Below are positions 7,792-27,961 of a stretch of DNA of 64,000 nucleotides, piece after piece. The notes beneath the pieces are model-generated. The model did no database searches. It saw nothing but the letters and a program-made list of their open reading frames with translations, and was not told the DNA's origin. This stretch comes from an uncultured Lacinutrix sp. (GTDB lineage: Bacteria; Bacteroidota; Bacteroidia; Flavobacteriales; Flavobacteriaceae). Every line of letters starts with the position of its first letter. Positions within the stretch are counted from its first letter, which is position 1. Position numbers and translations under genes: made by a program. The stretch is from the NCBI GenBank assembly GCA_937129145.1, contig CAKZMU010000007.1:1-64000 (forward strand), read 5' to 3'.

Positions 7792-7803
7792 TTCCGACAC
7801 ATT

Positions 7804-8217: not shown

Positions 8218-8226
8218 TAACTTGCT

Positions 8227-8234: not shown

Positions 8235-8249
8235 TCTGGTAATTAAACT

Positions 8250-9974: not shown

Positions 9975-9979
9975 ACTTT

Positions 9980-9993: not shown

Positions 9994-10015
9994 TAAACCT
10001 AGCTGTAATTTTAAT

Positions 10016-10023
10016 TAATTTTG
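10016..10023 (+). promoter_or_regulatory. -7 promoter element TAATTTTG for the MBL-rhodanese gene
   Basis: Identical to the element at 7206-7213. It lies 30 bp before the ATG at 10054 and at the expected distance from the operator at 9980-9993. Confidence 0.6.
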
Positions 10024-10053
10024 CAGTATATTATGAATGAATGAAATTTTGAT

Positions 10054-11533: not shown

Positions 11534-11947
11534 CTAATTATTTTCTTTAATATAACTCCAGCCTTCAGATTGCTTTAATGCAAGTTCATATATAGCATCT
11601 GGAACAATAATTACGCCTTCTATAAGCTCCGATTTTTTTGTCTTATATCTATTCATTGTACCTTGACAAACCGCAAATGTAACATTATCTTTCTTTGATA
11701 AATCTGCTATTTTGTTTGCATCTACAGACTTCTCTGCTAGTAACATATTTATGGCGCCACCATATATTACTATTTGAAATGTAGATTCTTTATACGCATT
11801 AGATGCATAAGTAATATGTCTAAGTGTCGATTCGTGTACTGCGGTATCTTTACTTGATACATCAAACACAATCTTGACTGGTTTCTCTTGAGCATTAATC
11901 ATGAAACTCATGATTAATGTTATTATTGTTATTATTTTAGCTTTCAT
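11534..11947 (-). CDS. secreted DsrE family protein
   Basis: The start is placed at 11947 (MKAKIITIITLIM...), giving 137 residues and a signal peptide ending at INAQ. A longer in-frame start at 11998 would overlap the upstream gene. The mature protein matches the DsrE/DsrF-like fold: KIVFDVSSKDTAVHESTLRHITYASNA, then a VNKxxDL-like helix and VTFAVCQGTMNR with a single Cys at the position often used by sulfur carriers. It is the last gene of the minus-strand sulfur operon, just downstream of a Tat-exported DsrE-like protein. A periplasmic sulfur-handling role is inferred. Confidence 0.75.
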   Translation of the reverse strand: MKAKIITIITLIMSFMINAQEKPVKIVFDVSSKDTAVHESTLRHITYASNAYKESTFQIVIYGGAINMLLAEKSVDANKIADLSKKDNVTFAVCQGTMNRYKTKKSELIEGVIIVPDAIYELALKQSEGWSYIKENN

Positions 11948-11954
11948 AACTTTT

Positions 11955-12635
11955 TTAATTACCAGCGAAAATATAACCACATCCATGCTCTTGTGCACGC
12001 CCTAAAGCCCAAACTCCAGAAGGCACCCATTGAATTCCTGGTTGTATGGCACCTTTCCATTCTTGATATACTTTTGCTGGGTCTAAATTCATTTTTTGAG
12101 CCACAGCATTACTGTTTACTTTCGCTGCAAGGTCACAAGCGCAGAACATAGCTCCACGTTCTTGTAATTGTTTAATACCTTGAATGACTGGCATTGGAAA
12201 ATCACCATCTTTAGGTTGGTAAAAAGGATTTCTAAGCGATGGTTTTCCTGTAGATTTGTCTATCACTCCAAACATTTCTCCAAGTTTGTATTTAGCCCAG
12301 ATTTCATCTTTTAAAGCAAAGCACATAGCAGAATGGCGTAAAACAGTCATTGCAGTTATATCTTCGTCTTTAGATCCTGTTTCATTGTTTGTTAGATAAA
12401 AAGCCCAATTCCAGATTATTGGAAATCCATCATGAGGTGTTGATCCATCATAAACAATACGATGCTTACCTTTTATGCCTTTAAACCAATCTTCTAAGTC
12501 ATTCATATTGTCATCATTAAAACTAGGTATGTTTGCATAAATTGGGTTGGTAAGTATTGACATCGTACTTGCTGTTGCGCCAAGAGCTATTGCTCCTAAA
12601 AATTTGCGTCTTGAATTGTCATTTGTTGTTTTCAT
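11955..12635 (-). CDS. Tat-exported DsrE-like protein
   Basis: This 226-residue protein begins with a twin-arginine signal (SRRKFLGAIALGA) and so is probably exported folded. The mature region has a DsrE-like layout: HRIVYDGSTPHDGFPIIWNWAFYL, a Cys in HSAMCFALKD, another pair in FCACDLA (about residue 169-175) and a C-terminal VPSGVWALGRAQEHGCGYIF. The four cysteines and gene order next to a TsdA-like cytochrome suggest a periplasmic sulfur-transfer partner. Its family is not firmly recognised. It sits 7 bp after the cytochrome gene and 7 bp before the DsrE gene. Confidence 0.68.
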   Translation of the reverse strand: MKTTNDNSRRKFLGAIALGATASTMSILTNPIYANIPSFNDDNMNDLEDWFKGIKGKHRIVYDGSTPHDGFPIIWNWAFYLTNNETGSKDEDITAMTVLRHSAMCFALKDEIWAKYKLGEMFGVIDKSTGKPSLRNPFYQPKDGDFPMPVIQGIKQLQERGAMFCACDLAAKVNSNAVAQKMNLDPAKVYQEWKGAIQPGIQWVPSGVWALGRAQEHGCGYIFAGN

Positions 12636-12642: not shown

Positions 12643-13686
12643 TTATTTAGTTTTAGTTATTTTATGTTTTTTCTTATAATATTCCATAATGGGTTGAAAA
12701 GGACCCTTTTGGTGCTGTTCTATTGAAAAGTCATCTTCATAAGGAGGGTATGGCGTTGAAACAGGTTTTTTTAATATGTTCGGAAAATCTTGTGCAAGAT
12801 TTGTTTTTTGTGGACGTTGCATTTGATTAATATAACCAGCTACGTCATAGGCCTCTTCATCTGTTAACTTTTGTTCCTCATATAAATTATCAAAAGGCAT
12901 ATTTCCTTTAATAAACTGAGCTGCGGTAATCACTCTAGTCATTCCAGCTCCATTATTGTAAGAATCATCACCCCAAAGTGGAGGGAATTCATACGTATAA
13001 CCATCTGAAGACATAGCTCCTTGCCCATTAATCCCATGACATCGAATGCAAACATTATTAAATATTTGTTTTCCATTATCTAAATCTATTGGTCTGTTTG
13101 GGATTTTTACACTTGTAAATCCTTGACCTTTTACTTTTCCATCTTCTGGTGCATAACGACTTAAAAAAGATAAGTAACTAACTAATGCGGTCATTTCTTT
13201 ACTTGTTGGAGGTAGTATTTTTCCATTCATACTGCGTTCAAAACAGCCGTTTATGCGTTCTTCAATGGTGCCAATTTTATCTTCTCTTCCTCTGTATTGT
13301 GGAAATCTATTTATTATTCCAATAAGTGGTGCTGCATATGGTTTTGTGCCAGAATTTAGATGACAATTATTACACGATAATCTATTCCCAGAAAAAACCT
13401 CATCATTAGCTTCATTATCTGGGCCTAAATATTTTGGTGTATTCTGAAAGAGTTCGTAGCCATATTTAATAATATCATTTTCTGGAGAATCGTCTAGTTG
13501 AGCAATATCATAACTCATATAAAACAAATTATCAAAGTCATCTGTCGAATTATTAAAAGATTCAAAAGAAACTACTCCAAAATACCATAGCATGGTAAAA
13601 ATGCCAAGAATAAGAACACTACCAAAGTAGCCGTAAATTACTCTGATGATGCTTTTGTAATTTTTATGTGTTAATTCAGTTAGCAT
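12643..13686 (-). CDS. tsdA: dihaem c-type cytochrome, TsdA-like thiosulfate dehydrogenase
   Basis: This 347-residue protein has one N-terminal membrane anchor (about 14-38) and two haem motifs, CNNCH (about 105) and CIRCH (about 213). Between them is INGCFERSMNG (about 146-156), which matches the region of TsdA that carries the unusual Cys haem ligand. TsdA couples two thiosulfates to tetrathionate. The gene lies in an operon with DsrE, OsmC and PFOR-like genes and opposite a persulfide dioxygenase, which supports thiosulfate chemistry. The membrane anchor places it in the periplasm facing the respiratory chain. Tetrathionate reduction is the reverse possibility. Confidence 0.8.
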   Translation of the reverse strand: MLTELTHKNYKSIIRVIYGYFGSVLILGIFTMLWYFGVVSFESFNNSTDDFDNLFYMSYDIAQLDDSPENDIIKYGYELFQNTPKYLGPDNEANDEVFSGNRLSCNNCHLNSGTKPYAAPLIGIINRFPQYRGREDKIGTIEERINGCFERSMNGKILPPTSKEMTALVSYLSFLSRYAPEDGKVKGQGFTSVKIPNRPIDLDNGKQIFNNVCIRCHGINGQGAMSSDGYTYEFPPLWGDDSYNNGAGMTRVITAAQFIKGNMPFDNLYEEQKLTDEEAYDVAGYINQMQRPQKTNLAQDFPNILKKPVSTPYPPYEDDFSIEQHQKGPFQPIMEYYKKKHKITKTK

Positions 13687-13696: not shown

Positions 13697-14512
13697 TTAT
13701 TTTATTCCGCTACAGATTACAAATTCACCTGGAATTTCATAACCGTCTGTGGTTTTAAATTTTTCTATTGATTTAATATATTCTTTTCTGGCTGATTTTT
13801 TTGTTTCTTCATCAAATCTAGAATATGCCATAGCCACAGGACCACCTAAAAAAGATGCATCACATGCTTCTTTACTTGATGAGTATAATAATTTAGTTTT
13901 TATTTTTTGAATCTTAATATCTTTAAACCCTGCATTTTCAAAAGGATATTTTAACACTTCACTTTCTCCTAAATTAAAAAACATTGGACAAACATCTGTA
14001 TTTACTCTTTTATCAACAATTGGAAAAATTTCAGCCCAACCACAGTTCTTTCTTGAGCCCCAAACTGCAACTACAGCTCGACCTCCCGGTTTTAGAACTC
14101 TATGCATTTCTAATAATGCATTATCTGGCTCAGGAAAATACATCAATCCTAGTGCGCACGTTGCAAGATTAAATGCATCATTGTCACTATCAAGATTTTC
14201 AGCATCCTCTCTTTTAAAATTAATGTTCTTTAGCTTTGCATCTAGTGATAAATTATTTCCAATATTTATCATTTCATCAGAAATATCAGTAGCCAATAAT
14301 TTTCCTTTTTCACTAGTTTTATCTAGTAACCTAAATGAGACTAACCCAGTTCCAGCTGCTATATCTATAATAGACTCACCTTCTTGAACATTAGCGGTTT
14401 CAATTAAAAGGTCATGTGCAGGTTTTAACTGTTTTTGCCAACTATTTTCATAATAAGTTGCAGCCTTATCCCAGCCATATCGTTGTACACGTCTTTGTAG
14501 ATTAGGATGCAT
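13697..14512 (-). CDS. class I SAM-dependent methyltransferase
   Basis: This 271-residue protein has motif I IIDIAAGTGLVSFRLL (about residues 46-61), LLATDISDEMI (motif II) and LATCALGLMYFPEP (motif IV). It belongs to the UbiE/Methyltransf_11 type. The start overlaps the end of the OsmC gene by 11 bp, so the two are translationally coupled. The substrate is unknown; sulfur or thiol methylation is possible from context but not shown by the sequence. Confidence 0.8.
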   Translation of the reverse strand: MHPNLQRRVQRYGWDKAATYYENSWQKQLKPAHDLLIETANVQEGESIIDIAAGTGLVSFRLLDKTSEKGKLLATDISDEMINIGNNLSLDAKLKNINFKREDAENLDSDNDAFNLATCALGLMYFPEPDNALLEMHRVLKPGGRAVVAVWGSRKNCGWAEIFPIVDKRVNTDVCPMFFNLGESEVLKYPFENAGFKDIKIQKIKTKLLYSSSKEACDASFLGGPVAMAYSRFDEETKKSARKEYIKSIEKFKTTDGYEIPGEFVICSGIK

Positions 14513-15029
14513 GACTTTGGCTTGTTGTTAGTTTAACTTCACGTTTGCAAGAAATTGCACGACTAAATACGTCTAAATAAGGACTGTGTTTATCTGCTTT
14601 ATCTAAAAAAGCTTCAATCTCTTTCGGAGTTGATGAGCTTTCGATATGAACATTATATCTTATTTCTGAATACCCAGGATATGCACTCGAAGTAGCAAAT
14701 AAAGCACCGTCATCATAGTCTGCTTCTATACTAATCTCTAAAGATTTAATTTCAATATTAAGTTTAGAAGCCCAAAGCATATACCCTGTTGCCAAACAGC
14801 TCCCTAAAGCCGCTCGCCCTAAAACCCCTCCTGTTGGCGCACTTCCTTGCCCTCCAATTTGCTGTGGCATATCCGTTTTCAGGGTCCATTCTCCTTCTTT
14901 TATTTCGCATATTAATCCATCAACTACTCTGGTAGTTGATACACCAGTACTTATGCCTAAATTAGGTTTTAGTGTTAAAGCTTTTTGGTTTCGTTCAAAC
15001 TTGTTTTTTATATTTTTTTGTGATTCCAT
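14502..15029 (-). CDS. OsmC family protein
   Basis: This 175-residue protein shows the OsmC core: GGVLGRAALGSCLATGYMLWA with the peroxidatic-type Cys (about residue 78) and a C-terminal beta-sheet ending in SCKREVKL. The second active-site Cys usually found in a CP motif is replaced by Ser (KHSPYLDVF). A two-cysteine peroxidase cycle at the usual positions is therefore not possible; a sulfur-binding role fits better. It lies between the PFOR-like gene and the methyltransferase and overlaps the latter. Confidence 0.8.
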   Translation of the reverse strand: MESQKNIKNKFERNQKALTLKPNLGISTGVSTTRVVDGLICEIKEGEWTLKTDMPQQIGGQGSAPTGGVLGRAALGSCLATGYMLWASKLNIEIKSLEISIEADYDDGALFATSSAYPGYSEIRYNVHIESSSTPKEIEAFLDKADKHSPYLDVFSRAISCKREVKLTTSQSHAS

Positions 15030-15071: not shown

Positions 15072-18000
15072 TTAATTATCTATCAATGTTGCTCTGTTAG
15101 GAAGATTGGCAGACGCAATGGCTAAATACTTATTAAAACGCTTATCAACTAGAACTTGTAAGTTACGGAAAATATCGTTTGTATTTTGCTTGCTAACCTT
15201 ATCGAAGCGTTTCTGCATCATCATGTAATCTTTTATTTTTATAGATGGCTTTTCAGAATCCAGCTGAAATGCATTTCCTCCTTGATCTTCTTTTCTTGGA
15301 TCATTTCTATATAAAATCCACTGACCTGAATCTACTGCTACTTTATGATATTGTGATGGATTTTTCATATCTATGCCATGAGAACTGCTATGCGTGTATG
15401 CAATAATAATGGATGGTCCATCAAAGCTTTCAGCTTCATTAAATGCTTTTAGTGTTTGTTTTTGGTTAGCACCTATGGCTACTGAAGCTACATAAACATT
15501 GTCATAAATCATAGCCAATCGGCCTAAATCCTTTTTTTGCTTTTGCTTTCCTTTGAATGCAAATTTTGCTGCTGCTCCAAAAGGTGTCGCTTTTGACATT
15601 TGTCCGCCAGTATTATCATATACTTCATTATCCAATACTAAAATGTTGACGTTTTCACCAGAAGCAATTACATGATCAACGCCGCCATAGCCAATGTCAT
15701 AAGCCCAACCATCGCCACCTACAATCCAAACAGATTTGCTAATTAAAGCATCAACAGTTTGAAGCAATTGGTATGCTTCTGGAATATCAATTTTAACTAG
15801 CTCACCCTTAAGTTTTTCAATATTTTCTTTTTGTAATTCTATGTTGTATTCGCTAGCTTGTTTAGCTTCAAGAATATCGTATACCAAATCAAAACTCAAA
15901 AAAGGGGTTAATTTTTTTAATAACTCTGATGCTTGTTTTGCTTGATTATTTAGCGACAATCTAAAACCTAATCCAAACTCAGCATTATCCTCAAATAATG
16001 AGTTTGACCAAGCTGGACCTTGACCTTGTTTGTTTTTTGACCAAGGCGTTGTGGGTAAAGCACCTCCAAAAATGGAACTTGCTCCAGTTGCGTTAGCAAC
16101 TAACAATCTGTTTCCAAACAATTGCGATAACAATTTAAGGTAAGGTGCTTCTCCACAACCTTCAACACCAATTGAATACTTAAATAATGGCTCTTGTAGT
16201 TGTTGTTGACTTAGTTTGCTTGCATCAATCTTTGTACGATCAAATTCAGGAATCGTTTTTGAGAACTCCCAATTTGTTTTTTCTTTTGACTCTGTAATTG
16301 ATTTTTGTGACATGACTAAAGCTTTTGCAGAACATGCATCTACGCAATTATTGCATGATGTGCATTGATCTGAGTGTATACTGATATTGTAATTTAAATC
16401 TTCAAAATCATTAGATTTTATTGACTTAAAGCTTTCTGGAGCTTCTTCTAAATAAATGTCTTCAAACGCTTTAATTCTAAGCACACTTTGAGGGCATGCC
16501 ATACTACATGCGCCACATTGAGTACATAAATCTGATTGCCATTCTGGAATTTCTAGCCCAGTTTTAGTTGTATTATAAATTGATGTATTACTTGGATACG
16601 TGCCATCAACAGGTAGCATGCTTACTGGAACTTCGTTGCCTTTATTTGTTAACAGTTTGCCTAGTAGAGTATTAGAAAACTCAGAATTAAATGGAATAGT
16701 TATTTCTTCTTTTTTGTAGCCAACACTTGTATCTACTTTATATATATAATCGCTAATACCAACGATTTCTTCTGATAAAATAAAATCATTTTTAATCCCT
16801 AAAAAACTAGCATAAAAATTTAAGATTGAGTTTTGCTCTAACTCAAAATAATCTTTCAACATATTTAAGTTAACGATATTTAAGTCAATCTCCTTTTCAA
16901 TAATCTCATATTGAGTATTCGCTGGTAAAGCTTGCCAAAATGCTTTAGTGGAAAGTGAAGAATTCACCAAAAGAATTCCTTTTGGTTTTATCTGATCTAA
17001 TGCATTGTCTTTTGTGATGAAGTATGCATTTTGGCAAGCAATAAAATCAGCTTGATTTATTAAGTAAGGAGCTTTTATAGGTTTGTTGCTAATTCTTAAA
17101 TGCGCAACTTGTCTTGAATTTGACTTTTTATAATCACACTCAGAATACCCTTGTGTATATTTCGTTTCACCAATAAATTTTTGAAGCTCACAAAAATCTT
17201 GAGTTGATGTTGCGCTTTTTTCTTGATAAAATAGTGCTTGATGAATTGAATTATTAAGTTGAATGTTCTTTAAAAGATGTAAGCTTAAATTTTTCACATC
17301 ATCGTTTATCCCAATGGTAAAATTTTGTTTTGGCTGTTCTTGTTTAAGATTGTTGAAAATGGCATGTACCATGCTAGGTGTAAATTCTTTCGAAGACAAG
17401 CCATAACGGCCTCCAATAACTTTCGGAAAAGTGTGAATGGTATTATTTTGAAAAGCTTTAGAGATAGATTGTATTATGTCTAAATATAGAGGTTCACCTG
17501 TTGATCCAGGTTCTTTTGTTCTATCTAAAACAGCGATTGATTTCACCGATTCTGGCAAAGCTTCAATAAGATGTTTGGTACTAAAGGGTCTGAATAATCT
17601 AACCTTTATCAAGCCAAATTTTTCACCTTGTTCGTTTAAATGATTAATAGTAGCTTCAACGGTTTCTGTAGATGATGCCATTGAAATAATAATGTGTTCA
17701 GCTTCAGGGTGGCCTATATAATCGAATAATTTGTAAGATCTTCCAGTAAGTATTTCAAAATAATCCATAGTATTTTGAACAATATTTGGACAATTGTCGT
17801 AATAAGTGTTTATAGCTTCGCGACTTTGAAAAAACACATCTGGCCCTTGTGAAGTGCCTTTTATAACTGGATTATTTGGATTCAGCGCACGATTGCGATG
17901 TCTTTTTACAGTTTTATAGTCTATCATACTGCTAATCACCTTATCTGAAATTGTTTCTATTCTAGAGGATTCATGAGAGGTTCTAAACCCATCAAAAAAG

Positions 18001-18506
18001 TGCACAAAAGGAATTAAAGATTTTAGGGAAGCTACTTGTGCAATTAACGCAAAATCTTGAGCTTCTTGTACTGATGCGCTTGCTAACATTGCATAACCAG
18101 ATTGACGTACTGCCATTACATCACTATGATCACCAAAAATTGATAAGGCATGTGTTGCTATACTTCTTGTAGCAACGTGAATGACATTTGGAGTTAATTC
18201 GCCAGCAATTTTATACATATTTGGCAGCATTAGCAGCAGGCCTTGAGATGCCGTGAATGTTGCTGATAAGGAACCAGTTTGTAAAGCACCATGCATTGTA
18301 CCAGCTGCACCTGCTTCACTTTGCATTTGCATAGCTATTGGAACACTACCAAAAATATTTGGTATGTTTTTAGCGCTCCATTCTTCAATTACCTCAGACA
18401 TTTCTGAAGCTGGTGTAATAGGATAAATAGGGAAGACCTCATTAGTCTTGTATGCTATTTGTGCTACTGCTTGGTTAGCTGTTAATATGTTGTGCTTTGT
18501 TATCAT
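15072..18506 (-). CDS. pyruvate:ferredoxin oxidoreductase-like protein lacking proximal-cluster ligands
   Basis: This 1144-residue single-chain protein has the complete PFOR domain order: YPITPASEMSE at the N-terminus, a ferredoxin domain with two intact CxxCxxCxxxC motifs (about residues 662 and 719), and a TPP domain with GGDGWAYDIGYGG (about 934) and YDNTGGQ. The proximal [4Fe-4S] site is degraded. The usual CxxCGE reads VEGCGE (about 780), ATGCSS reads ATGASS (about 807), and YSPC reads YTHS (about 1039), so three of four ligands are gone. It leads the operon with OsmC, TsdA and DsrE genes. TPP chemistry may persist, but the normal electron path cannot. Its substrate is therefore uncertain. 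Confidence 0.85.
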   Translation of the reverse strand: MITKHNILTANQAVAQIAYKTNEVFPIYPITPASEMSEVIEEWSAKNIPNIFGSVPIAMQMQSEAGAAGTMHGALQTGSLSATFTASQGLLLMLPNMYKIAGELTPNVIHVATRSIATHALSIFGDHSDVMAVRQSGYAMLASASVQEAQDFALIAQVASLKSLIPFVHFFDGFRTSHESSRIETISDKVISSMIDYKTVKRHRNRALNPNNPVIKGTSQGPDVFFQSREAINTYYDNCPNIVQNTMDYFEILTGRSYKLFDYIGHPEAEHIIISMASSTETVEATINHLNEQGEKFGLIKVRLFRPFSTKHLIEALPESVKSIAVLDRTKEPGSTGEPLYLDIIQSISKAFQNNTIHTFPKVIGGRYGLSSKEFTPSMVHAIFNNLKQEQPKQNFTIGINDDVKNLSLHLLKNIQLNNSIHQALFYQEKSATSTQDFCELQKFIGETKYTQGYSECDYKKSNSRQVAHLRISNKPIKAPYLINQADFIACQNAYFITKDNALDQIKPKGILLVNSSLSTKAFWQALPANTQYEIIEKEIDLNIVNLNMLKDYFELEQNSILNFYASFLGIKNDFILSEEIVGISDYIYKVDTSVGYKKEEITIPFNSEFSNTLLGKLLTNKGNEVPVSMLPVDGTYPSNTSIYNTTKTGLEIPEWQSDLCTQCGACSMACPQSVLRIKAFEDIYLEEAPESFKSIKSNDFEDLNYNISIHSDQCTSCNNCVDACSAKALVMSQKSITESKEKTNWEFSKTIPEFDRTKIDASKLSQQQLQEPLFKYSIGVEGCGEAPYLKLLSQLFGNRLLVANATGASSIFGGALPTTPWSKNKQGQGPAWSNSLFEDNAEFGLGFRLSLNNQAKQASELLKKLTPFLSFDLVYDILEAKQASEYNIELQKENIEKLKGELVKIDIPEAYQLLQTVDALISKSVWIVGGDGWAYDIGYGGVDHVIASGENVNILVLDNEVYDNTGGQMSKATPFGAAAKFAFKGKQKQKKDLGRLAMIYDNVYVASVAIGANQKQTLKAFNEAESFDGPSIIIAYTHSSSHGIDMKNPSQYHKVAVDSGQWILYRNDPRKEDQGGNAFQLDSEKPSIKIKDYMMMQKRFDKVSKQNTNDIFRNLQVLVDKRFNKYLAIASANLPNRATLIDN

Positions 18507-18770: not shown

Positions 18771-19325
18771 TTACCCTTTTACAATTTCGATAGTAACAGG
18801 AGTAGGATTGGTAATCATATCAAAAACAGGAGAGAACTTAGCTAAGTTTTCTAATTGCTCTGCAGTTGCATCTGATTTTACTTTTAGTTTGAAGTTAATA
18901 CCATCAAATCCCATGCGTACCTCAGGATCTAACCCTAAGAAGCCGTGAAGATCGCATCCACCTTCTAAAGTAGAAGAAGCGCTTTCAATGTCAATTCCGT
19001 TTGCCGCTGCATGGTAAACCATAGCACCTGTTAAACAAGAACCTAAAGCGTGTAATACTACTTCTGGAGGGGTAGCAGCTTCATTTTCTCCTAATAATAC
19101 TTTGGGATGACTGCATTCCATTGTGAAAGTTTCTTCACGAGATGTGTCTTCTGCGCCTACGCCATAAAAACCCTTAATACTAGAAACGCAATGTCCTCCA
19201 TTAATCCAATTGTTTTTTGATCTGAATTGGAATTTTGCTAATTCTGGGTTTGATTGTACTGCACCAATAGTTTCTACTAATTGATCTACGTTTACTCCGT
19301 TTTTAATGTTTGCTGTTGTAATCAT
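18771..19325 (-). CDS. OsmC family protein
   Basis: This 184-residue protein has the OsmC core with VVLHALGSCLTGAMVYHAAANGIDIES (about residues 89-115) and a C-terminal FSPVFDMITNPTPVTIEIV. The first active-site Cys (GSC) is present. The second is Ser (FSPV), a frequent variant in the family. It has its own terminator and a palindrome-rich upstream region, so it is probably an independently regulated gene. Roles in organic hydroperoxide or sulfur stress are family knowledge; the substrate is not known. Confidence 0.83.
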   Translation of the reverse strand: MITTANIKNGVNVDQLVETIGAVQSNPELAKFQFRSKNNWINGGHCVSSIKGFYGVGAEDTSREETFTMECSHPKVLLGENEAATPPEVVLHALGSCLTGAMVYHAAANGIDIESASSTLEGGCDLHGFLGLDPEVRMGFDGINFKLKVKSDATAEQLENLAKFSPVFDMITNPTPVTIEIVKG

Positions 19326-19407
19326 TGTTTTAGTTTTTAAAATTTAAATTGATTTTTTTTATTGTTTGGGAAGTATAATGCGATTGTCGTGCCAAAACTT
19401 GTAAATA

Positions 19408-19505
19408 CCTAATAATCAAATAAATAAACCGTATTATTGTATTATTAGGCTAACTCAATTTCGTATTATAACGAAATATCGTTACATATTTACGAAATAT
19501 CGTGA
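19408..19505 (-). promoter_or_regulatory. palindrome-rich control region upstream of OsmC gene
   Basis: Several inverted repeats are packed here: CCTAATAAT/ATTATTAGG (19408-19416 and 19441-19449), ATTTCGT/ACGAAAT (19458-19464 and 19471-19477), TAACGAAATATCGTTA (19469-19484) and TTACGAAATATCGTGA (19490-19505). The last two share ACGAAATATCGT exactly 21 bp apart, two helical turns, which suggests paired regulator dimers. The region starts 83 bp before the OsmC ATG and ends just after the neighbouring gene's stop. Confidence 0.5.
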
Positions 19506-19529: not shown

Positions 19530-20084
19530 TTAAATTGACTTAAAGTTCTTATCAAATTTCAACGTTTTCTTGATATGACCTTGACTGATTTGTATTTTGT
19601 ATTCTTGCTTTTCAATACCGTGCTCTTTATTATAAGTCACGTAATAGGTATTCTTTGTGAATGACCAACCAGGATTTTCTTTTAAAATTAAGACCCTTAG
19701 TTTGTGAGGAATTTTGATATTATAAAACTTTTCTTTCGAGGTTAAAATTCCCCCGTTATTATCATATACTGTAGTGATTCTTGCCTGTTTGTTCTTGAAT
19801 ACAATACGATATGAAGCCTTTTCTGAGTTATCAAAAACCGATGTATTATTAAGGTCGAAATCTGCAATTTTTCGCATCCAATAGTTTACAGTGTTGGATT
19901 CTTGATTTGTTCCTTTTCTTACTAAATAGATTGAATTCTTTCTTTTTAAAGAAACAGAATTAATATGTTTCTTAGCATATTTAAATTCGGTTGGATTTGC
20001 ATCTTGAAATGCCAAGTCATTTTGTTGCCCACTTATAAAGTTTATAGTAAGTACGCTTGCTATTGTTAAAATTAAATTTCTCAT
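19530..20084 (-). CDS. secreted protein of unknown function
   Basis: This 184-residue protein has a signal peptide ending at FISGQ. The mature part is basic and beta-rich. It contains NTVNYWMRKIADFDLNNT, a middle YDNNGGILTSKEKFYNIKIPHKL and LILKENPGWSFTKNTYYVTYN, a pattern reminiscent of small BLIP/PepSY-like or lipid-binding periplasmic proteins of flavobacteria. No family is certain. It is probably monocistronic, downstream of the AraC gene by 127 bp. Confidence 0.65.
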   Translation of the reverse strand: MRNLILTIASVLTINFISGQQNDLAFQDANPTEFKYAKKHINSVSLKRKNSIYLVRKGTNQESNTVNYWMRKIADFDLNNTSVFDNSEKASYRIVFKNKQARITTVYDNNGGILTSKEKFYNIKIPHKLRVLILKENPGWSFTKNTYYVTYNKEHGIEKQEYKIQISQGHIKKTLKFDKNFKSI

Positions 20085-20211
20085 AATATTATATGTTTAT
20101 TGTTATTATGAGACAAAAGTATTGTGTTAAAGGCGCATAGAATTACCTCTAAAGTTCAATTTTATTGGTATAAGGTTCAAAGCCTAAAAAAGTGATTAAA
20201 ACAGAAAATAA

Positions 20212-21081
20212 TTACTTATTGAAGTATGTTTTTCTGTATTGATTTGGTGGAAGTTGATATTTTTCTTTGAATGAACTATTAAAGTGAGACGTGTTTTTAA
20301 AACCACTTTCAAAACAAATATCATTAATATTTAATTCTGGATTTTCGAGTAGTGTTTTTGCATATTCCAACCTTTTATTATTTAGCCATTTTCTCGGTGT
20401 CTCGTTATAATAATTTTGAAAATCTCTTTTAAACGTAGATAAACTCTTGCCATACATTCGTGCAAATTCATTGAGGCTTAAATCACAATGAAAATTTTTC
20501 ATCATGATATCGTTAAGATTCGTTTTTTCTACATGTTTGAGAGAATTAAAAAAACTAAGCAAATCTTTATTTGCAGGGTTTAAAGCAATATTGAATAAGA
20601 GTTCGTTAAACTTAATTTCCACGAGTTCCTTTGGAATGTTACTACTTTGGTTCAAATAATTAAAAACAGATAGAAACAAAGAGTTTAAATTATCCCCAAC
20701 CTTAATGGGAAATATTTGACTATTATCATGACTATTTGTTTTTGTTGCGATTAAATCTTCATGATTTTTTACAAACCGTCTAATAAAATCGTCAGTAATA
20801 AAAAACAACATCACACAATAATCTACTTCAAAATATTGCTTGGTATTATAAACACCTTTATTAACAAATAAAGCTTCGCCTTTTTCTATAGTATAGTTCT
20901 TGTCAAAAGCAGTCCAATCTTTTCTACCACTTATTACATAAGTAATAAAAGGTGTATCTGTCCATAATTTGAAATTCTCTACTTCAATAGGGCATTTATA
21001 CTCAACCATTAAATAATCGTTACCGACTAACTTATTATAGCGAGGATGTTTTAAAAAGTAGTTGTAGATGTCTATTGCCAT
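20212..21081 (-). CDS. AraC family transcriptional regulator
   Basis: This 289-residue protein has an N-terminal cupin-like sensor region (about 1-160). The C-terminal AraC domain has two HTH motifs: LSLNEFARMYGKSLSTFKRDFQNYY and LNINDICFESGFKNTSHFNSSFKEKYQLPPNQYRK, the family signature. The inducer is unknown. It lies upstream of, and in the same direction as, a small secreted protein. The next gene upstream is a cupin protein, so the three may belong together. Confidence 0.85.
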   Translation of the reverse strand: MAIDIYNYFLKHPRYNKLVGNDYLMVEYKCPIEVENFKLWTDTPFITYVISGRKDWTAFDKNYTIEKGEALFVNKGVYNTKQYFEVDYCVMLFFITDDFIRRFVKNHEDLIATKTNSHDNSQIFPIKVGDNLNSLFLSVFNYLNQSSNIPKELVEIKFNELLFNIALNPANKDLLSFFNSLKHVEKTNLNDIMMKNFHCDLSLNEFARMYGKSLSTFKRDFQNYYNETPRKWLNNKRLEYAKTLLENPELNINDICFESGFKNTSHFNSSFKEKYQLPPNQYRKTYFNK

Positions 21082-21192
21082 TACTTCAAATTAATTAATA
21101 TTAGTTTAAAAACAATAAAGGGTTAGTTAGAATGATTTTTTTTACCTGTTTCCAGTTGTATCGTATTTTCCTGAAGAATTTAATCATATAAT

Positions 21193-21856: not shown

Positions 21857-23695
21857 TTAAATTGGGCGTTCTATACCTAAGGCTTTAATTCTTGATGCCA
21901 ATGTAGTAGGAGGTAGCTGCAATAAATTTGCAGCACCATTAGCTCCTGAAATTTTCCATTTAGTCTGCCTTAATGCTTTTAAAATATTTGTTCGTTCTAA
22001 ATCAACAAGTTGTTTAGATGTCAATACAGCATCTGTGTTTTCCTGAGCTTTTTGTATTGTAGTTTCATCATTGTTTGGAATGATGTCTTGCCAGTTGATT
22101 ACGCCATTGTTAGAAACTATAATTGCTCGCTCAATTAAATTTTGTAGTTCACGTACGTTTCCTGGCCAAGGATAGTTTGATAGTAATGTTTTATCAGTTC
22201 CTGATAATTCAATTAATGGTTTGCCTAATTTTTTAGAGAACTGTTGCATCATTTCATCTGCTATTAAACAAATATCATCACCACGTTCTCTTAAGGCAGG
22301 AATTTCAATTGGGAATACATTTAGTCTGTAATATAAATCTTCTCTAAATTTACCTTCATTAGCATGTTCCAATAAATTACGATGTGTGGCTGCTATAATG
22401 CGAACATCTACTTTAATAGTTTCTGAACTACCAACTGGGTCAAATTCACCTTCTTGAATAACGCGTAATAACTTTGGTTGCAAGTCAATTGGCAATTCTC
22501 CAATTTCATCAAGAAAAATTGTGCCTTTGTCTGCAAGTAAAAAGCGACCTTTTCTATCAGCAGTTGCACCTGTAAAAGCTCCTTTTTTATGACCAAATAA
22601 TTCACTCTCTATAAGGTTGGCAGGAATTGCTCCACAATTAATTCTAATAAGTGGTTTTTCATTTCTTGGGCTTGCTTTATGAATTGCTCGAGCTATAAGT
22701 TCTTTTCCAGTTCCAGTTTCACCAGTAACCAAAACTGTAGCGTCGGTTTTTGCTACTTGATCAACGTGAGTTAGAACATTGAGCATTTTTACGTTTTTGG
22801 CAATAATGCCATGATTGTTTGTAAGGGCATTAATTTCTTCAGCTAAATACTCAGTTTGAGTGGTTAATAAATTAATTGTGTCTTCAGCAATTAAGCGGTC
22901 TTCGATATTTCTTAAAATAAGCGTGTAAAATACATCCTCATCTATGCCATATTTACTTATAGTGCCCTCATTTAATGAAGCCGTCTCATTAGATCCTATC
23001 ACTTTTATAATCTCAGAAATATATTGAGAGCTGCTTTTTAACCCAGAAGTCACTAGGGACTCAATATGATTAGCGCTATGCTCATCAAAAAAGAATAGAA
23101 CATTACGTTGTAGTACATCATTATTTTCTAAAAGCTTGTCAGCCGAAGGATTTGTAAGTACTATTTTAAAGTTTTTATCAAACATAATAATAGCATCCAT
23201 TGCGCCTTTAATGAGTCCTTTCATTTTTGCACTAGCTAATTCTAAATCATGTTTTGATGTTGCCAAATGTTCTTGAATAGCATCTAATTCACGGTGACGT
23301 TTAATCATTACCGAAAGTATGCCTTGAGCAAATCCACTATCGATTTTCATTAATTCTAAAAACGATTCTCGATTAATTTTTAGAACTTTTGTTCGTTCTA
23401 ATGTAGTGACTGATGCGGACCTTGGCTTATTATCGATTAAAGCATATTCTCCAAAACAATCACCAGTTTTAAGTTCGCCAAAAACGTGATTGTTTTCATG
23501 AATTTTTACACAACCACTAGTAATTATGTACATAGAATCACCTAAATCATCTTTATCGAAGATTGTTTTATTTTTAATAAAGGTTTCTTCAGATAATTCA
23601 CGAGCAAGCTTTTTAAGTGAAGATTCGCTAACTTCAGAAAAGAAGAATACATTTGATAAAAAAGCTAAAAAATCTTCTGATGCTATGTTTGCCAT
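21857..23695 (-). CDS. sigma-54 activator with cyclic-nucleotide and PAS domains
   Basis: This 612-residue protein has four parts. A cNMP-binding domain (about 1-120) carries an intact phosphate-binding cassette FGEYALIDNKPRSASV (about 80-95). A PAS domain (about 155-270) follows. The AAA+ domain has Walker A GETGTGKE (about 325), GAFTGA (about 372) and Walker B TIFLDEIGELP. A C-terminal Fis-type HTH (about 565-612) has GANGAANLLQLPPTTLASRIKALGI. The combination suggests a cyclic nucleotide plus a second signal controlling sigma-54 promoters. It is divergent from two adjacent class III cyclase genes, the likely source of the ligand. Confidence 0.88.
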   Translation of the reverse strand: MANIASEDFLAFLSNVFFFSEVSESSLKKLARELSEETFIKNKTIFDKDDLGDSMYIITSGCVKIHENNHVFGELKTGDCFGEYALIDNKPRSASVTTLERTKVLKINRESFLELMKIDSGFAQGILSVMIKRHRELDAIQEHLATSKHDLELASAKMKGLIKGAMDAIIMFDKNFKIVLTNPSADKLLENNDVLQRNVLFFFDEHSANHIESLVTSGLKSSSQYISEIIKVIGSNETASLNEGTISKYGIDEDVFYTLILRNIEDRLIAEDTINLLTTQTEYLAEEINALTNNHGIIAKNVKMLNVLTHVDQVAKTDATVLVTGETGTGKELIARAIHKASPRNEKPLIRINCGAIPANLIESELFGHKKGAFTGATADRKGRFLLADKGTIFLDEIGELPIDLQPKLLRVIQEGEFDPVGSSETIKVDVRIIAATHRNLLEHANEGKFREDLYYRLNVFPIEIPALRERGDDICLIADEMMQQFSKKLGKPLIELSGTDKTLLSNYPWPGNVRELQNLIERAIIVSNNGVINWQDIIPNNDETTIQKAQENTDAVLTSKQLVDLERTNILKALRQTKWKISGANGAANLLQLPPTTLASRIKALGIERPI

Positions 23696-23815: not shown

Positions 23816-25855
23816 ATGTCGCAAAAGAGGCAGCTCTCTGCTATAATGTTTACTGATATTGAAGGCTATACTGCAATGATGCAGTTTGACGAGAAAAAAG
23901 CTATTCTAGTTAGAAATAAGCATCGTGCTATTATGGATGAAATTACAGAAAAGCATGATGGCCAATTAATACAGTATTATGGCGACGGTACACTAAGCAC
24001 CTTTAAAAGCTCAATAGCTGCTGTAAAATGTGGTATTGAGATGCAGAAGGCTTTTATGGAAGCTCCTAATATTCCTGTAAGGATTGGTATTCATGTTGGT
24101 GATATAATTATTACAGAGTCGGATATTATTGGTGATGCTGTAAATATTGCATCTAGAATTGAATCTTTAGCTATGGCTGGGAGTGTTTTGATTTCAGACA
24201 AAATAAATGATGCATTAAGGAATAAGAAAGATATTGAAACTAAGTTTTTAGATGCTTTTGAATTCAAAAACGTTAATAAAGTTATTCCGATTTTTGCCGT
24301 GTCTTCTGATGGATTGATAGTTCCTGAACTAGAAAATATTAAAGGAAAAACTAAGCCAAAGGATAATGAAAATTTTAAAAAATATAAAAGAAAAACTATT
24401 TATGCTTTATCTTTTTTACTCGTTGTTATATTAGCACTAACATACTATATGACGATGACTTCTGGAAGAGTGTTTACAGGAGATAAAATAACATTGGCCG
24501 TTATTCCTTTTGATAATATGAATAATGATAATGAATCTGAAATGTTTGCAGATGGCGTTACTGAGGATATTATAACTCAGTTGTCCAAGATTCAAAACTT
24601 GCAAATTACATCTCGAGCCTCAGCAATGCGTTATAAAGGTACTGAGAAAACAGTTTCTGAAATTGGAGATGAACTTGGAGTAGAACTTATTCTTGGTGGA
24701 AGTGTTAGAAAGCATAATGATCAAGTAAGGATTAATGCGCAGCTGGTTGATGCCACAAATAACAGAAACCTTTGGGCGGATAATTATGATAATGTTTTAG
24801 ATAAAATATTTGAAATACAAACTGAAGTATCTAAAGATATTGCTAATGCTTTGGAAATCACTTTAAGCGATAATGAGCAAGATAGATTAGAAAATTCGCC
24901 AACAAATAACTCAGATGCTTATATGGCTTATAAGCAAGGGCAAATGTTTTTGAATAGAGGAGGTGGAAAAGTAGAAGAGCTAGAACAAGCTGAGGATTTC
25001 TTTAAAGAAGCCATTAGATTAGATCCAAATTTTTGTAGCGCTTATGTTGGTTTAGCAGACACTTATGTAGAGTATATATATTGGGGAAGAGCTGCTCCAG
25101 CTGAGATTTTAGAAAAAGCTTTCAGTCCAACTGTAACTGCTTTATCAATAAATTCAAATGATGGAGGAAGTCATGGTGCTTTAGGGTCATTAAGCTTTTA
25201 TAAGTTTGAGCGTGAAACTGCTGTGTTATCTTTAGAAAAAGCTCTAGAAATAAACCCAAGCTATGTAGGTGCTTATGATAAATTAGCTTGGATTCGCGTT
25301 TTTGATAACGATTTAGAAGGTGCTATTTCTTTATTTGAAAAAGCACTAGAATTGGACCCCTTATCAGTTAAATATTTGGCTAACATTGGTTTTGTATATG
25401 CATATTTCGGTAAATATGATGAAGGATTAAAGGTTTTAAATGAGAATATAGTTAAGTATGCTATAGATGATAATATGTTGTTATGGATGAAGGCAAATAT
25501 TCTCTCATTAAAAGGAGACCATAATGAAGCTGTTGAATTATTCAATTCCAGATCAGATGGTACTAACACCAATTGGATGCTAGGGTATACTTATGCTAAA
25601 ATGGGTAATATAGAGAAAGCTAATGAAATACTTTCTTATCAATTAAATAAAAGCGAAACAACATTTGTTCCTCCGTATATGATTGCTTCAATCTATATTG
25701 GTTTAGGAGATAAAGAAAAAGCTTTGGAATGGTTAGAAAAAGATTATGAATCTGGAGGCTTAGGTTTGTTTTTTTGGTTATTAAAAATAGATGTTAAGTT
25801 TGAATCACTTCAAGATAATCCAAGATTTATTGCGCTTTTAGATAAAGTTAAATAA
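23816..25855 (+). CDS. class III nucleotide cyclase-TPR membrane protein
   Basis: This 679-residue protein starts with a cyclase catalytic domain (about 1-170). The metal Asp residues are in IMFTDIEGYT (about 11-20) and YYGDGTL (about 54-60), and the catalytic Asn/Arg in GDAVNIASRIE (about 107-117). A single membrane helix lies at about 192-214. A FlgO/TolB-like domain (VIPFDNMNNDN to NALEI) and TPR repeats follow to the C-terminus. The residue before YYGDG that normally selects the base is Gln instead of Lys, so the substrate is uncertain. The gene is divergent from the cNMP-domain activator and followed 72 bp later by a paralogue. Confidence 0.87.
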   Translation: MSQKRQLSAIMFTDIEGYTAMMQFDEKKAILVRNKHRAIMDEITEKHDGQLIQYYGDGTLSTFKSSIAAVKCGIEMQKAFMEAPNIPVRIGIHVGDIIITESDIIGDAVNIASRIESLAMAGSVLISDKINDALRNKKDIETKFLDAFEFKNVNKVIPIFAVSSDGLIVPELENIKGKTKPKDNENFKKYKRKTIYALSFLLVVILALTYYMTMTSGRVFTGDKITLAVIPFDNMNNDNESEMFADGVTEDIITQLSKIQNLQITSRASAMRYKGTEKTVSEIGDELGVELILGGSVRKHNDQVRINAQLVDATNNRNLWADNYDNVLDKIFEIQTEVSKDIANALEITLSDNEQDRLENSPTNNSDAYMAYKQGQMFLNRGGGKVEELEQAEDFFKEAIRLDPNFCSAYVGLADTYVEYIYWGRAAPAEILEKAFSPTVTALSINSNDGGSHGALGSLSFYKFERETAVLSLEKALEINPSYVGAYDKLAWIRVFDNDLEGAISLFEKALELDPLSVKYLANIGFVYAYFGKYDEGLKVLNENIVKYAIDDNMLLWMKANILSLKGDHNEAVELFNSRSDGTNTNWMLGYTYAKMGNIEKANEILSYQLNKSETTFVPPYMIASIYIGLGDKEKALEWLEKDYESGGLGLFFWLLKIDVKFESLQDNPRFIALLDKVK

Positions 25856-25927: not shown

Positions 25928-27961
25928 ATGTCACAAGACAGAAAGCTTGCAGCTATAATGTTCACAGATATCAAAGGTTATACTGCTTTGATGCAAGAAG
26001 ATGAACAAAAAGCATTTGAGTTGCGCAATAGACATCGTGAAGCTTTTGAAATGACAACTGAAGCCTTTAATGGTGAAATCTTGCAATATTTTGGAGATGG
26101 TACTTTGAGCGTTTTTAAAAGTAGTGTAGAAGCTGTTGAGTGTGCTATTGAGATGCAGCTCGCTTTCTTAAAACATAATATACCTGTTAGAATAGGAATT
26201 CATGTTGGGGATATAATGTTCTCTAAAGATGATATTATTGGAGATGCCGTAAATGTTGCATCTCGCATAGAATCTTGTGCAGACGCTGGTAGTGTATTGA
26301 TTTCAGATAAGGTTCACGACCAAATACGGAGTCATCCTCATATTAAAACTCAATTTTTAGACGCTTACGAGTTTAAAAATGTTGATAATGCCATTCCTAT
26401 TTTTGCCCTAGCCAATAAAGGCCTGGTAGTACCAGATTCTCAAGAATTAAAGGGAAAATTCAAAGAAGAAACAAATAAAAGTTGGAAAAGTAATTCTTCA
26501 AAAAAAATTAATGCATTATTTGCTGCAGTCATAATTGTAGCACTTTCAATATTTGTTTACCTCCAGTTTTCTAAAAACAACAAACCGAATATTAAAAATT
26601 ATTCAATTGCAGTGTTACCTTTTGATAATTTAAGTACAGATGATGACGCCGAAATTTTTAGAGATGGAATGACTGAGGATATTTTAACTAACTTGTCTAA
26701 ACTTAAAGAGTTACATGTAATTTCTCGTACTTCAGTAATGCAATATAAGAATACCGAAAAAACCATTCCAGAGATTGCTAAAGAATTGGGTGTATCGTAT
26801 ATTTTAGAAGGTAGTGTTAGAAAATATGGAGATAAAATAAGGGTTACTGCTCAGCTTATTGAAGCTAGTTCCGATGAACATCTTTGGGCAGATAATTATG
26901 ATAAAACCTTAACAGATATTTTTGCCATTCAAACAGAAGTTTCAGAAGAAATTGTTGAAGCTTTGGAGCTTAATATTTCATTTGAAGAGAAAGAAAGTAT
27001 TACTGAAGTGCCAAAGCATAATATTGAAGCCTATAAACTATTTCTAAAAGGTCGACAAGAAGCAGATAAGCGAAATGCTAAAAGTTTAGACAAAAGTATA
27101 GATTTGTTTGAACAGGCTATAAAAATTGACCCAAATTACGCTGAAGCTTATGCAGAAATTGCTAATTCAATTTATTTACAGACATATTATTCTGGTAGAA
27201 ACTATATAGAAGCTGCAAAAGTAGCTAATGAGTATGTAGCTAAAGCAGAGAATATTGATAGTAGGATCTCGAGGATTTACTCTGTTAAAGGTTTGATTCT
27301 TAATATTGAAGGAAAACGAGACTTAGCAAAAACCGCATTTTCTAAAGCATTAACACTATCTCCTAATGATTTAACTGCGAGACATCAATTTGCCACACTC
27401 CATTATTATACAAAAGAATATGACAAACAATTAGAACAAGCTGAAATGGCGTATCGTTTAGACCCACTATCTTTTGCTTCTGCTAATGCATATTTTACAG
27501 CATTGCTTACAAATAAAAAATACGAAGAAGCTGAGAAGCTTATAAAAAAGATAGATGAAGATGGTATTGAAAATGATCAAATATCTATTTATAGATCTTA
27601 TTTTAGATTATATATGGATTTGCGAGATTATGAAAAAGCTATTTTTTATTCGGAGAAAATAGTTGATGATTTTGCTATTTACAATCGTTTTTTAGGATAT
27701 TGTTATGCTAAAGTTGGAGATATTACTGGAGCCTATAGAATGATAGACGATGTTAAAAAAAGAACACCAGACATGTTTAAAAGTCATCAGCTAGCTGTTA
27801 TTTATTCTGGATTGCAAAAAAGAGATAGTGTATTTTATTATTTAGACCCAACTAGAAATAAAATGAAAGATTTGATTGTCATGGATAGACCAACTTTTTT
27901 CACCAATTTTGAAGGTGATTCAAAATTTATAGAGCTTCTTAAAGCTCATGGAATTGAGTAA
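25928..27961 (+). CDS. class III nucleotide cyclase-TPR membrane protein, tandem paralogue
   Basis: This 677-residue protein has the same architecture and length as the preceding gene. It has a cyclase domain with IMFTDIKGYTALMQEDEQKA, YFGDGTLSVF and GDAVNVASRIES, a membrane helix at about 193-214, a FlgO/TolB-like domain (SIAVLPFDNLSTDDDAEIF) and C-terminal TPRs. The two proteins are clearly similar along their whole length, so they arose by tandem duplication. It also has Gln before YFGDG. It lies directly upstream of the denitrification operon, separated by 184 bp with a promoter. Confidence 0.87.
   Translation: MSQDRKLAAIMFTDIKGYTALMQEDEQKAFELRNRHREAFEMTTEAFNGEILQYFGDGTLSVFKSSVEAVECAIEMQLAFLKHNIPVRIGIHVGDIMFSKDDIIGDAVNVASRIESCADAGSVLISDKVHDQIRSHPHIKTQFLDAYEFKNVDNAIPIFALANKGLVVPDSQELKGKFKEETNKSWKSNSSKKINALFAAVIIVALSIFVYLQFSKNNKPNIKNYSIAVLPFDNLSTDDDAEIFRDGMTEDILTNLSKLKELHVISRTSVMQYKNTEKTIPEIAKELGVSYILEGSVRKYGDKIRVTAQLIEASSDEHLWADNYDKTLTDIFAIQTEVSEEIVEALELNISFEEKESITEVPKHNIEAYKLFLKGRQEADKRNAKSLDKSIDLFEQAIKIDPNYAEAYAEIANSIYLQTYYSGRNYIEAAKVANEYVAKAENIDSRISRIYSVKGLILNIEGKRDLAKTAFSKALTLSPNDLTARHQFATLHYYTKEYDKQLEQAEMAYRLDPLSFASANAYFTALLTNKKYEEAEKLIKKIDEDGIENDQISIYRSYFRLYMDLRDYEKAIFYSEKIVDDFAIYNRFLGYCYAKVGDITGAYRMIDDVKKRTPDMFKSHQLAVIYSGLQKRDSVFYYLDPTRNKMKDLIVMDRPTFFTNFEGDSKFIELLKAHGIE

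What the first reader, a model, noticed from the sequence alone, without database searches (positions are those of the whole stretch)
15072..18506. PFOR-like protein lacking three of four proximal [4Fe-4S] ligands
Compared with known PFORs (recalled, not aligned here), CxxCGE reads VEGCGE, ATGCSS reads ATGASS and YSPC reads YTHS. The ferredoxin domain clusters and the TPP motifs are intact. Three specific losses at the same site are not random decay. The protein heads a sulfur operon with OsmC, TsdA and DsrE genes, so it may catalyse a different oxo-acid or sulfur reaction, or pass electrons by another route.
Basis: partly seen in the sequence, partly recalled or inferred. Interest (0 to 1): 0.75.

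Follow-up and report, generated by a model that had tools for sequence, protein, structure and literature searches.

The report
Rewired PFOR without its first cluster
Some bacteria of the family Flavobacteriaceae carry a version of the classic pyruvate-oxidising enzyme PFOR that lacks three of the four cysteines of its first iron-sulfur cluster and the motif that binds coenzyme A in its relatives, yet keeps its other cofactor residues, so it likely works by a different route, perhaps together with the thiol protein encoded next to it.

Summary
The window protein (15072-18506, minus strand) is one of 190 proteins, of 275 distinct PFOR-family proteins compared, in which three of the four proximal-cluster cysteines are gone (0 of 190 keep any of the three; 85 of 85 canonical proteins have all four). 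The fourth stays in 189 of 190. The same proteins lack the domain III P-loop that binds CoA in Moorella PFOR (0 of 190). Both ferredoxin-type clusters (8 cysteines, 190 of 190) and the TPP/pyruvate residues are kept. They form one side of one tree branch, occur in 39 of 397 genomes of the window's family, and have dN/dS near 0.1, so they are not decaying. In 42 of 42 variant loci an OsmC gene with an extra cysteine lies upstream, behind a conserved sigma-54 promoter element, usually near a cyclic-nucleotide-binding sigma-54 activator. Likely function: CoA-independent TPP chemistry on pyruvate, with electrons or the acyl group passed on without a proximal cluster. The acceptor is not shown; the OsmC cysteines are my candidate. 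Novelty: new variant of a known kind.

The parts
15072..18506 (-). PFOR-like protein, 1144 aa, lacking three proximal-cluster cysteines and the CoA P-loop
16155..16166 (-). codons of V781-C784 (canonical CxxC of the proximal cluster; only the second Cys is kept)
   Evidence: alignment; codon positions worked out from the ORF start 18506
16080..16082 (-). codon of A809 (canonical third proximal Cys)
15387..15389 (-). codon of S1040 (canonical fourth proximal Cys; Ser in 189 of 190 variants, 1 gap)
17181..17225 (-). residues 428-442, where canonical PFORs have the glycine-rich P-loop GLGxDGTVGANKN
   Evidence: role of the P-loop from a passage of PMC8091585
16332..16526 (-). ferredoxin-like domain, residues 661-725, all 8 cluster cysteines present
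   Evidence: each of 8 positions Cys in 190 of 190 variants
18771..19325 (-). OsmC1, first gene of the operon; Cys46 in 44 of 44 and Cys97 in 25 of 25 copies checked
19380..19396 (-). sigma-54-type promoter element TTTGGCACGACAATCGC in front of OsmC1
   Evidence: TGGCAY at 55-80 bases in 43 of 44 loci
19453..19503 (.). operator repeats (two exact ACGAAATATCGT palindromes at 19471 and 19492 and a degenerate copy), likely sites of the sigma-54 activator
21857..23695 (-). sigma-54 activator with cyclic-nucleotide-binding domain (Reg)
   Evidence: present in 41 of 44 loci
23816..25855 (+). class III nucleotide cyclase with TPR repeats (CycA), divergent from Reg
25928..27961 (+). second class III nucleotide cyclase with TPR repeats (CycB)
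14502..15029 (-). second OsmC-family gene (OsmC2); a relative (73% identity) follows the PFOR fragment in L134
13697..14512 (-). SAM-dependent methyltransferase of the UbiE type
12643..13686 (-). TsdA-like dihaem thiosulfate dehydrogenase
   Evidence: 4wqc, E 5.1e-47
11955..12635 (-). protein with twin-arginine signal (by eye), no Pfam or NCBIfam match
11534..11998 (-). DsrE-like protein, signal peptide by eye

Best explanation
This is a branch of PFOR, found here in Flavobacteriaceae, that lacks three of the four proximal-cluster cysteines and the CoA-binding P-loop but keeps the pyruvate, TPP and ferredoxin-domain residues, and it likely carries out TPP-dependent decarboxylation of pyruvate without CoA, with the acyl group or electrons predicted to go to another acceptor, possibly the cysteines of its partner OsmC1, instead of through a proximal cluster. 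Shown: the residue pattern, its confinement to one tree group, purifying selection, and the constant OsmC1-PFOR gene order behind a conserved sigma-54 promoter element. Inferred: the window protein holds no proximal [4Fe-4S] cluster (one cysteine remains) and does not make acetyl-CoA; PDH, which the genome has, likely does that. Inferred: both ferredoxin clusters are built and used, since all eight ligands are invariant. Untested: that OsmC1 Cys46 and Cys97 meet the TPP intermediate as the lipoamide disulfide does in PDH, or take over the relay between TPP and the ferredoxin domain. Untested: that the activator is switched by cAMP from the neighbouring cyclases.
For: Proximal cysteines: none of the three in 190 of 190 variants, all four in 85 of 85 canonical proteins, no intermediates among 275. 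P-loop pattern GLGxDG[TS]VGANK: 0 of 190 against 76 of 85; by alignment G428, L429, V435 and N438 are 85 of 85 in canonical proteins and in at most 10% of variants. Ferredoxin cysteines 8 of 8 in 190 of 190; Thr31 in 186, Glu64 in 188, Arg114 in 189, Ile812 and Asn965 in 190 of 190. Domain III of Moorella PFOR binds CoA through its P-loop (passage of PMC8091585). In StOFOR1 the cluster was required for oxidative decarboxylation, while neither cluster nor CoA was required for the non-oxidative reaction (passage of PMC5020499). OsmC1 lies upstream of PFOR on the same strand in 42 of 42 variant loci, 49-281 bases away in 41 and 887 bases with a 185-aa ORF between in L130, and near none of the 77 other loci, whose flanks vary in length. 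OsmC1 Cys46 is in 44 of 44 copies but is Asn in 120 of 120 nearest paralogs. Promoter element in 43 of 44 loci against 0.5% of shuffled upstreams; L120 lacks element, palindromes and activator together. PDH E1 alpha in the genome.
Against: No activity, metal content or interaction was measured. Two genomes (G780, G625) keep OsmC1 with Cys46 and the activator but have no PFOR in the locus, so OsmC1 does not depend on the variant; both hold a canonical PFOR elsewhere. The remaining C784 is kept in 189 of 190 and could serve another cofactor or relay. The model of the protein has a wrong domain arrangement (rmsd 30 A to 6cin), so I have no distance from TPP to the medial cluster, and slow direct tunnelling is not excluded. 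Whether Cys46 lies near Cys97 was not shown: the profile alignment to an Ohr starts at position 63, and the OsmC1 model is weak (mean pLDDT 67.8, below 50 at residues 33-45, just before Cys46).
Confidence: 0.42

Rival explanations
1. A plain non-oxidative decarboxylase or carboligase: the variant turns pyruvate into acetaldehyde, acetolactate or acetoin on TPP, and the ferredoxin domain is kept for structure only.
For: Loss of cluster and CoA site is what such a change would allow; StOFOR1 does non-oxidative decarboxylation without cluster and CoA (PMC5020499, passage), and Pyrococcus POR makes acetaldehyde (PMC4030962, passages), though there CoA is needed in a structural role.
Against: All eight ferredoxin-domain cysteines are invariant in 190 of 190, more than a purely structural domain needs. 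Three groups were not typed.
Confidence: 0.2
2. A slow, CoA-independent pyruvate:ferredoxin oxidoreductase: electrons tunnel straight from the TPP intermediate to the medial cluster and water releases acetate.
For: Both the TPP site and the ferredoxin clusters are kept; no extra partner is needed.
Against: In known structures the proximal cluster lies between TPP and the ferredoxin domain (PMC5020499, passages). Does not explain the constant OsmC1.
Confidence: 0.14
3. Another cofactor sits in the emptied site, held by C784 and by residues at the changed positions (Ser1040, and Asp or Glu at 781 or Cys at 1038 in many relatives), and takes over the relay.
For: C784 in 189 of 190 and Ser1040 in 189 of 190 with 1 gap; Cys at 1038 in 140 of 190.
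Against: The window protein has Val781, Ala809 and Thr1038, so one cysteine only; no second good ligand is shared by all members.
Confidence: 0.12
4. A sulfur enzyme: C784 carries sulfane sulfur, and the system works with OsmC, TsdA and DsrE on thiosulfate or persulfides.
For: TsdA-Tat-DsrE are in 10 of 44 loci, in the same direction as OsmC1 and PFOR where laid out, and directly after OsmC1 in the two loci without PFOR; the TsdA relation is clear.
Against: 34 of 44 loci lack these genes; by eye the TsdA-like, Tat and DsrE-like proteins carry export or membrane signals.
Confidence: 0.08
5. Decaying PFOR or a non-catalytic regulatory remnant.
For: Loss of a cluster and of the CoA loop; the deep members L133 and P0121 have very long branches, and L004 has lost the fourth cysteine too and has YPCTP for YPITP.
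Against: dN/dS 0.095-0.133 in six pairs, a seventh saturated; catalytic and cluster residues kept in nearly all 190 proteins; conserved promoter element.
Confidence: 0.04

Closest known systems
Pyruvate:ferredoxin oxidoreductase (PFOR/NifJ; Moorella 6cin, D. africanus 1b0p)
   Same: Same fused domain order, 40-43% identity, pyruvate and TPP residues, two ferredoxin-type clusters
   Different: Lacks three of four proximal-cluster cysteines and the domain III CoA P-loop; Thr to Asn at 960 (Asn in 190 of 190 against Thr in 84 of 85)
Oxalate oxidoreductase (5c4i), an OFOR that needs no CoA
   Same: Related fold (domain I 2.8 A); no CoA used
   Different: Has three clusters and the YPIRP motif (PMC5020499); the variant has YPITP and lacks the proximal cluster ligands
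Sulfolobus OFORs (5b46, 5b48)
   Same: TPP, and pyruvate recognised by Thr and Arg
   Different: The opposite case: only the proximal cluster, no ferredoxin domain (PMC5020499)
OsmC/Ohr thiol peroxidases; nearest solved relative 2opl
   Same: OsmC1 is an OsmC-family protein with the first catalytic Cys (Cys97)
   Different: Ser165 at the resolving-Cys position; extra Cys46 (Asn in 120 of 120 nearest paralogs)
PDH E1 with lipoyl E2 (comparison of mechanism only, recalled)
   Same: The proposed hand-off of a TPP-bound acyl group to a protein disulfide
   Different: No lipoyl protein among the operon genes typed; hand-off not shown

Membership tests
PFOR (TIGR02176) | Full-length model score above the curated cut-off | tested here: met
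   1372 bits against 911.35
PFOR (TIGR02176) | Pyruvate and TPP residues (YPITP Thr, Glu64, Arg114, Ile843, Asn996) | tested here: met
   Window T31, E64, R114, I812, N965; 186-190 of 190 variants
PFOR (TIGR02176) | Four cysteines of the proximal [4Fe-4S] cluster | tested here: not met
   One of four in 189 of 190, none in 1 of 190
PFOR (TIGR02176) | CoA-binding P-loop in domain III | tested here: not met
   0 of 190 variants, 76 of 85 canonical by pattern
PFOR (TIGR02176) | Eight cysteines of the two ferredoxin-domain clusters | tested here: met
   190 of 190 at each position
PFOR (TIGR02176) | CoA-dependent pyruvate oxidation with ferredoxin reduction | not testable with these tools
   Needs purified protein
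Oxalate oxidoreductase | YPIRP motif | tested here: not met
   Window has YPITP; position 31 is Thr in 186 of 190, Ala in 1, gap in 3
OsmC/Ohr peroxidase (for OsmC1) | Peroxidatic and resolving cysteine pair | tested here: not met
   Cys97 kept, but Ser165 at the second position in 25 of 25
OsmC/Ohr peroxidase (for OsmC1) | Catalytic Arg next to the peroxidatic Cys | tested here: inconclusive
   Profile alignment to an Ohr starts at position 63
Sigma-54 activator (for Reg) | Sigma-54 interaction domain with GAFTGA motif | tested here: met
   PF00158 246.7 bits; GAFTGA in the sequence
Thiosulfate dehydrogenase TsdA (for 12643-13686) | Similarity over both haem domains, two CxxCH sites | tested here: met
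   4wqc E 5.1e-47 over residues 86-292; CNNCH and CIRCH

The most novel reading that the evidence does not exclude
A PFOR scaffold rewired for thiol chemistry: the Cys46/Cys97 pair of OsmC1 stands in for both CoA and the proximal cluster, taking the acyl group from the TPP intermediate by reductive acylation as lipoamide does in PDH, while the two ferredoxin clusters exchange electrons with the resulting thiols. That would be a third way, besides PDH and ordinary PFOR, of coupling pyruvate decarboxylation to electron carriers, switched on by a cyclic-nucleotide-sensing sigma-54 activator.
Probability: 0.14. Interest if true: 0.9.

Novelty: new variant of a known kind. Interest (0 to 1): 0.68.

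Why it matters
PFOR is a textbook enzyme, and its three-cluster wire and its use of CoA are taken as standard. Here selection has kept a whole group (190 distinct proteins in this sample), often named PFOR by annotation, that lacks the ligands for the first step of the wire and the CoA loop. Counting them as acetyl-CoA-forming, ferredoxin-reducing enzymes is likely wrong. The branch also offers a natural experiment on what the proximal cluster is for, with a defined partner gene and regulator to test.

Tried and rejected
Rejected: displaced ligands. No cysteine lies within three columns of position 809 in any of 190 variants, and a cysteine within three columns of 1040 (the YCHS one) is absent in 50 of 190, the window included. 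Rejected: chance decay. Rejected: a strict OsmC1-PFOR bond, because two genomes keep OsmC1 without PFOR. A PFOR fragment in G717 looked like an exception; by its residues at 113 and 221 it is canonical, and it is cut by the contig end. Five genomes with a single hit of 48-50% identity (G610, G658, G725, G756, G789) were read and are canonical.

The PFOR model confirms the fold by domains, but its domain arrangement is off by 30 A, so no distances were taken. The OsmC1 model is too weak to place Cys46. Literature searches showed no paper on this branch; only the open-licence PMC library was searched and only listings, abstracts and passages were seen. The Moorella PFOR-CoA paper is not held and is recalled. 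In PADLOC, PFOR had only a weak BrxP match and OsmC1 none; the activator matched RtcR-type and cyclic-nucleotide models, which I take as shared domains.

Limits of the counts: 179 of the 190 variants are among the best 120 hits of two searches, each with about 8000 scored candidates; 76 canonical proteins come (L053 was not read in full) and 9. Of 290 proteins, 15 were dropped because residues 201-600 were identical to another's. One search was a first version whose filter missed 11 loci. The 120 OsmC paralogs are the nearest to one paralog, so other OsmC groups are not sampled. The 55-80 base range for the promoter element was set after looking at the first 25 loci; the 19 later loci all have it. 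No chance rate was computed for the palindromes over the 44 loci. One of seven dN/dS pairs could not be measured for PFOR and Reg (saturated synonymous sites), and three pairs share members. In the tree, L133 and P0121 are long branches that meet, and their place is unsure.
Full report
What is there. The ORF at 15072-18506 (minus strand) encodes 1144 aa. TIGR02176 matches with 1372 bits, cut-off 911.35, and phmmer aligns it with the solved PFORs 6cin, 7plm and 1b0p. A search of the 4.0 Mb genome with that model finds only this gene. The genome also has a PDH E1 alpha above its model cut-off, so acetyl-CoA from pyruvate likely does not depend on the variant.

The proximal cluster. I compared 275 distinct PFOR-family proteins. 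Eighty-five have all four proximal cysteines. No protein lies in between. The names Cys812, Cys815, Cys840 and Cys1071 of the D. africanus enzyme are recalled; the alignment itself comes. The most constant replacement is Ser1040 (189 of 190, one gap). Position 781 is mostly Val, Asp, Glu or Ile, and position 809 is Ala, Ser or Thr.

The CoA loop. Canonical PFORs have GLGxDGTVGANKN in domain III. The pattern GLGxDG[TS]VGANK is in 76 of 85 canonical proteins and 0 of 190 variants; by alignment its glycines and Asn438 are in 84 or 85 of 85 canonical proteins, except one glycine in 78. A passage of PMC8091585 says that domain III of the Moorella enzyme forms a P-loop that binds CoA. The variants therefore likely do not bind CoA in the usual way. 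This loss was not in the finding.

What is kept. All eight ferredoxin-domain cysteines are present in 190 of 190. Thr31 is in 186, Glu64 in 188, Arg114 in 189, and Ile812 and Asn965 in 190 of 190; PMC5020499 (section 7) names Thr31, Arg114, Ile843 and Asn996 as pyruvate residues. Position 960 is Thr in 84 of 85 canonical proteins and Asn in 190 of 190 variants; I recall it as a metal-ligand position, where Asn is usual in other TPP enzymes. The DaPFOR Ala219 position is Ser in 148 and Ala in 35 of 190.

Evolution. In a tree of 61 proteins, 29 variants and 32 canonical proteins fall on two sides of one branch with SH-aLRT 100. Two deep members (L133, P0121) are long branches and their place is unsure. 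Of 397 genomes of the window's family I count 39 with the variant, one of them (G148) split over two contig ends; motifs were read, though the last motif was not printed for every locus. The partner OsmC1 was looked for in 148 genomes drawn from the order and 296 from the phylum, sets that overlap and include some of the same family: at E 1e-20 it rang only in the own genome, in G154 of the same family and, at 35% identity, in one genome of the same class. The PFOR variant itself was not searched there. dN/dS of PFOR is 0.095-0.133 in six pairs; a seventh was saturated.

The operon. In 42 of 42 loci with the variant, an OsmC gene (OsmC1) lies upstream on the same strand; the gap is 49-281 bases in 41 and 887 bases, with a 185-aa ORF in it, in L130. 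None of the 77 other loci has it nearby; 56 of those 80 loci reach 15 kb. Between 55 and 80 bases before OsmC1, 43 of 44 loci have the sigma-54 element TGGCAY (0.5% of shuffled upstreams do); 42 of 44 have at least one and 35 at least two ACGAxxxxTC[GA]T palindromes further up; 41 of 44 have the sigma-54 activator. L120, the one locus without the element, also lacks palindromes and activator in the fetched stretch; L121 lies at a contig end and L153 has no activator within its 14 kb. The genome has rpoN. The operator in the tandem form searched (18-base spacing, up to 3 mismatches) occurs at one place in the genome, so the activator may be dedicated. The activator has a cyclic-nucleotide-binding domain, and class III cyclases often lie beside it, so cAMP control is a fair guess, not shown.

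OsmC1. It is 184 aa; its nearest solved relative is 2opl (E 6.7e-43). Cys97 is the usual first cysteine, and the usual second one is Ser165. Cys46 is present in 44 of 44 copies of OsmC1 but is Asn in 120 of 120 nearest paralogs and in the two paralogs L135 and L139; L140 has Ala there. By eye Cys46 stands next to where Ohr has its catalytic Arg; the Ohr motif is recalled, a profile alignment did not reach that far, and the model of OsmC1 is weak there. In Ohr the Arg loop lies near the peroxidatic Cys, opens on oxidation, and lipoylated proteins are the reductant (passages of PMC5962072). This is the basis of my guess that OsmC1 is a redox or acyl partner of the variant.

Results against this. 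Two genomes of one genus (G780, G625) have activator, OsmC1 with Cys46, TsdA, Tat and DsrE, but no PFOR there; both have a canonical PFOR elsewhere with four cysteines and the P-loop. OsmC1 thus has a use without the variant. Three genomes (G154, G194, G623) have both PFOR types (the canonical copies read).

The sulfur genes. TsdA, the Tat protein and DsrE are present in 10 of 44 loci, among them the window, in the same direction as the PFOR or OsmC1 gene, and follow in the fragment locus L134 together with OsmC2 and the methyltransferase. The TsdA assignment is good. By eye the three proteins carry export or membrane signals, so a direct reaction with the cytoplasmic PFOR is unlikely; a shared regulation is likely.

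Other neighbours. Eleven gene groups not matched to window genes recur within 9 kb in at least 4 of 42 loci. Eight were typed: universal stress protein (10 loci), S13 peptidase (8), LysR regulator (8), DUF3108 (8), M28 peptidase (8), ferritin (5), NUDIX (4) and one without match (7). None suggests a product pathway.

Mechanism. In solved OFORs with a ferredoxin domain the proximal, medial and distal clusters lie in a row from TPP to the surface (passages of PMC5020499), and in StOFOR1 the cluster was required for oxidative decarboxylation while neither cluster nor CoA was required for the non-oxidative reaction. The variant should therefore still bind and decarboxylate pyruvate, should not make acetyl-CoA, and likely cannot use a proximal cluster. 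Why the ferredoxin clusters stay invariant is the open point. I prefer a relay or acyl acceptor outside the polypeptide, with OsmC1 as candidate; plain decarboxylation and slow direct tunnelling are the main rivals. Confidence in the anatomy is high; confidence in the whole account is 0.42.

Noticed in passing
28146-37496: A denitrification gene island (copper nitrite reductase at 29969-31435, 347 bits; the two genes before it read like nitric oxide reductase, by eye) sits between the cyclase CycB and the DUF4870-dnaN genes, which lie close together in several relatives.
   Followed up: partly
23816-27961: Two tandem class III cyclase-TPR genes, divergent from the sigma-54 activator; many relatives have one or both.
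   Followed up: partly
7234-11475: Sulfur-transport and handling genes on the plus strand: two Sulf_transp (YeeE/YedE-type) proteins, a SulP permease and a metallo-beta-lactamase-rhodanese fusion.
   Followed up: no
L189, L190: Absence of the PFOR gene from an otherwise intact activator-OsmC1-TsdA-Tat-DsrE locus in two species of one genus.
   Followed up: partly
L004: A variant that has also lost the fourth proximal cysteine (GSGE) and reads YPCTP for YPITP.
   Followed up: no
own genome, genus g1: Two other genomes of the window's genus (G606, G770) show neither OsmC1 nor the PFOR variant at the thresholds used.
   Followed up: no
19530-21750: A small unknown gene, an AraC regulator and a cupin gene lie between OsmC1 and its activator in the window; an AraC and the unknown gene also lie there in L005, L145 and L146.
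   Followed up: no
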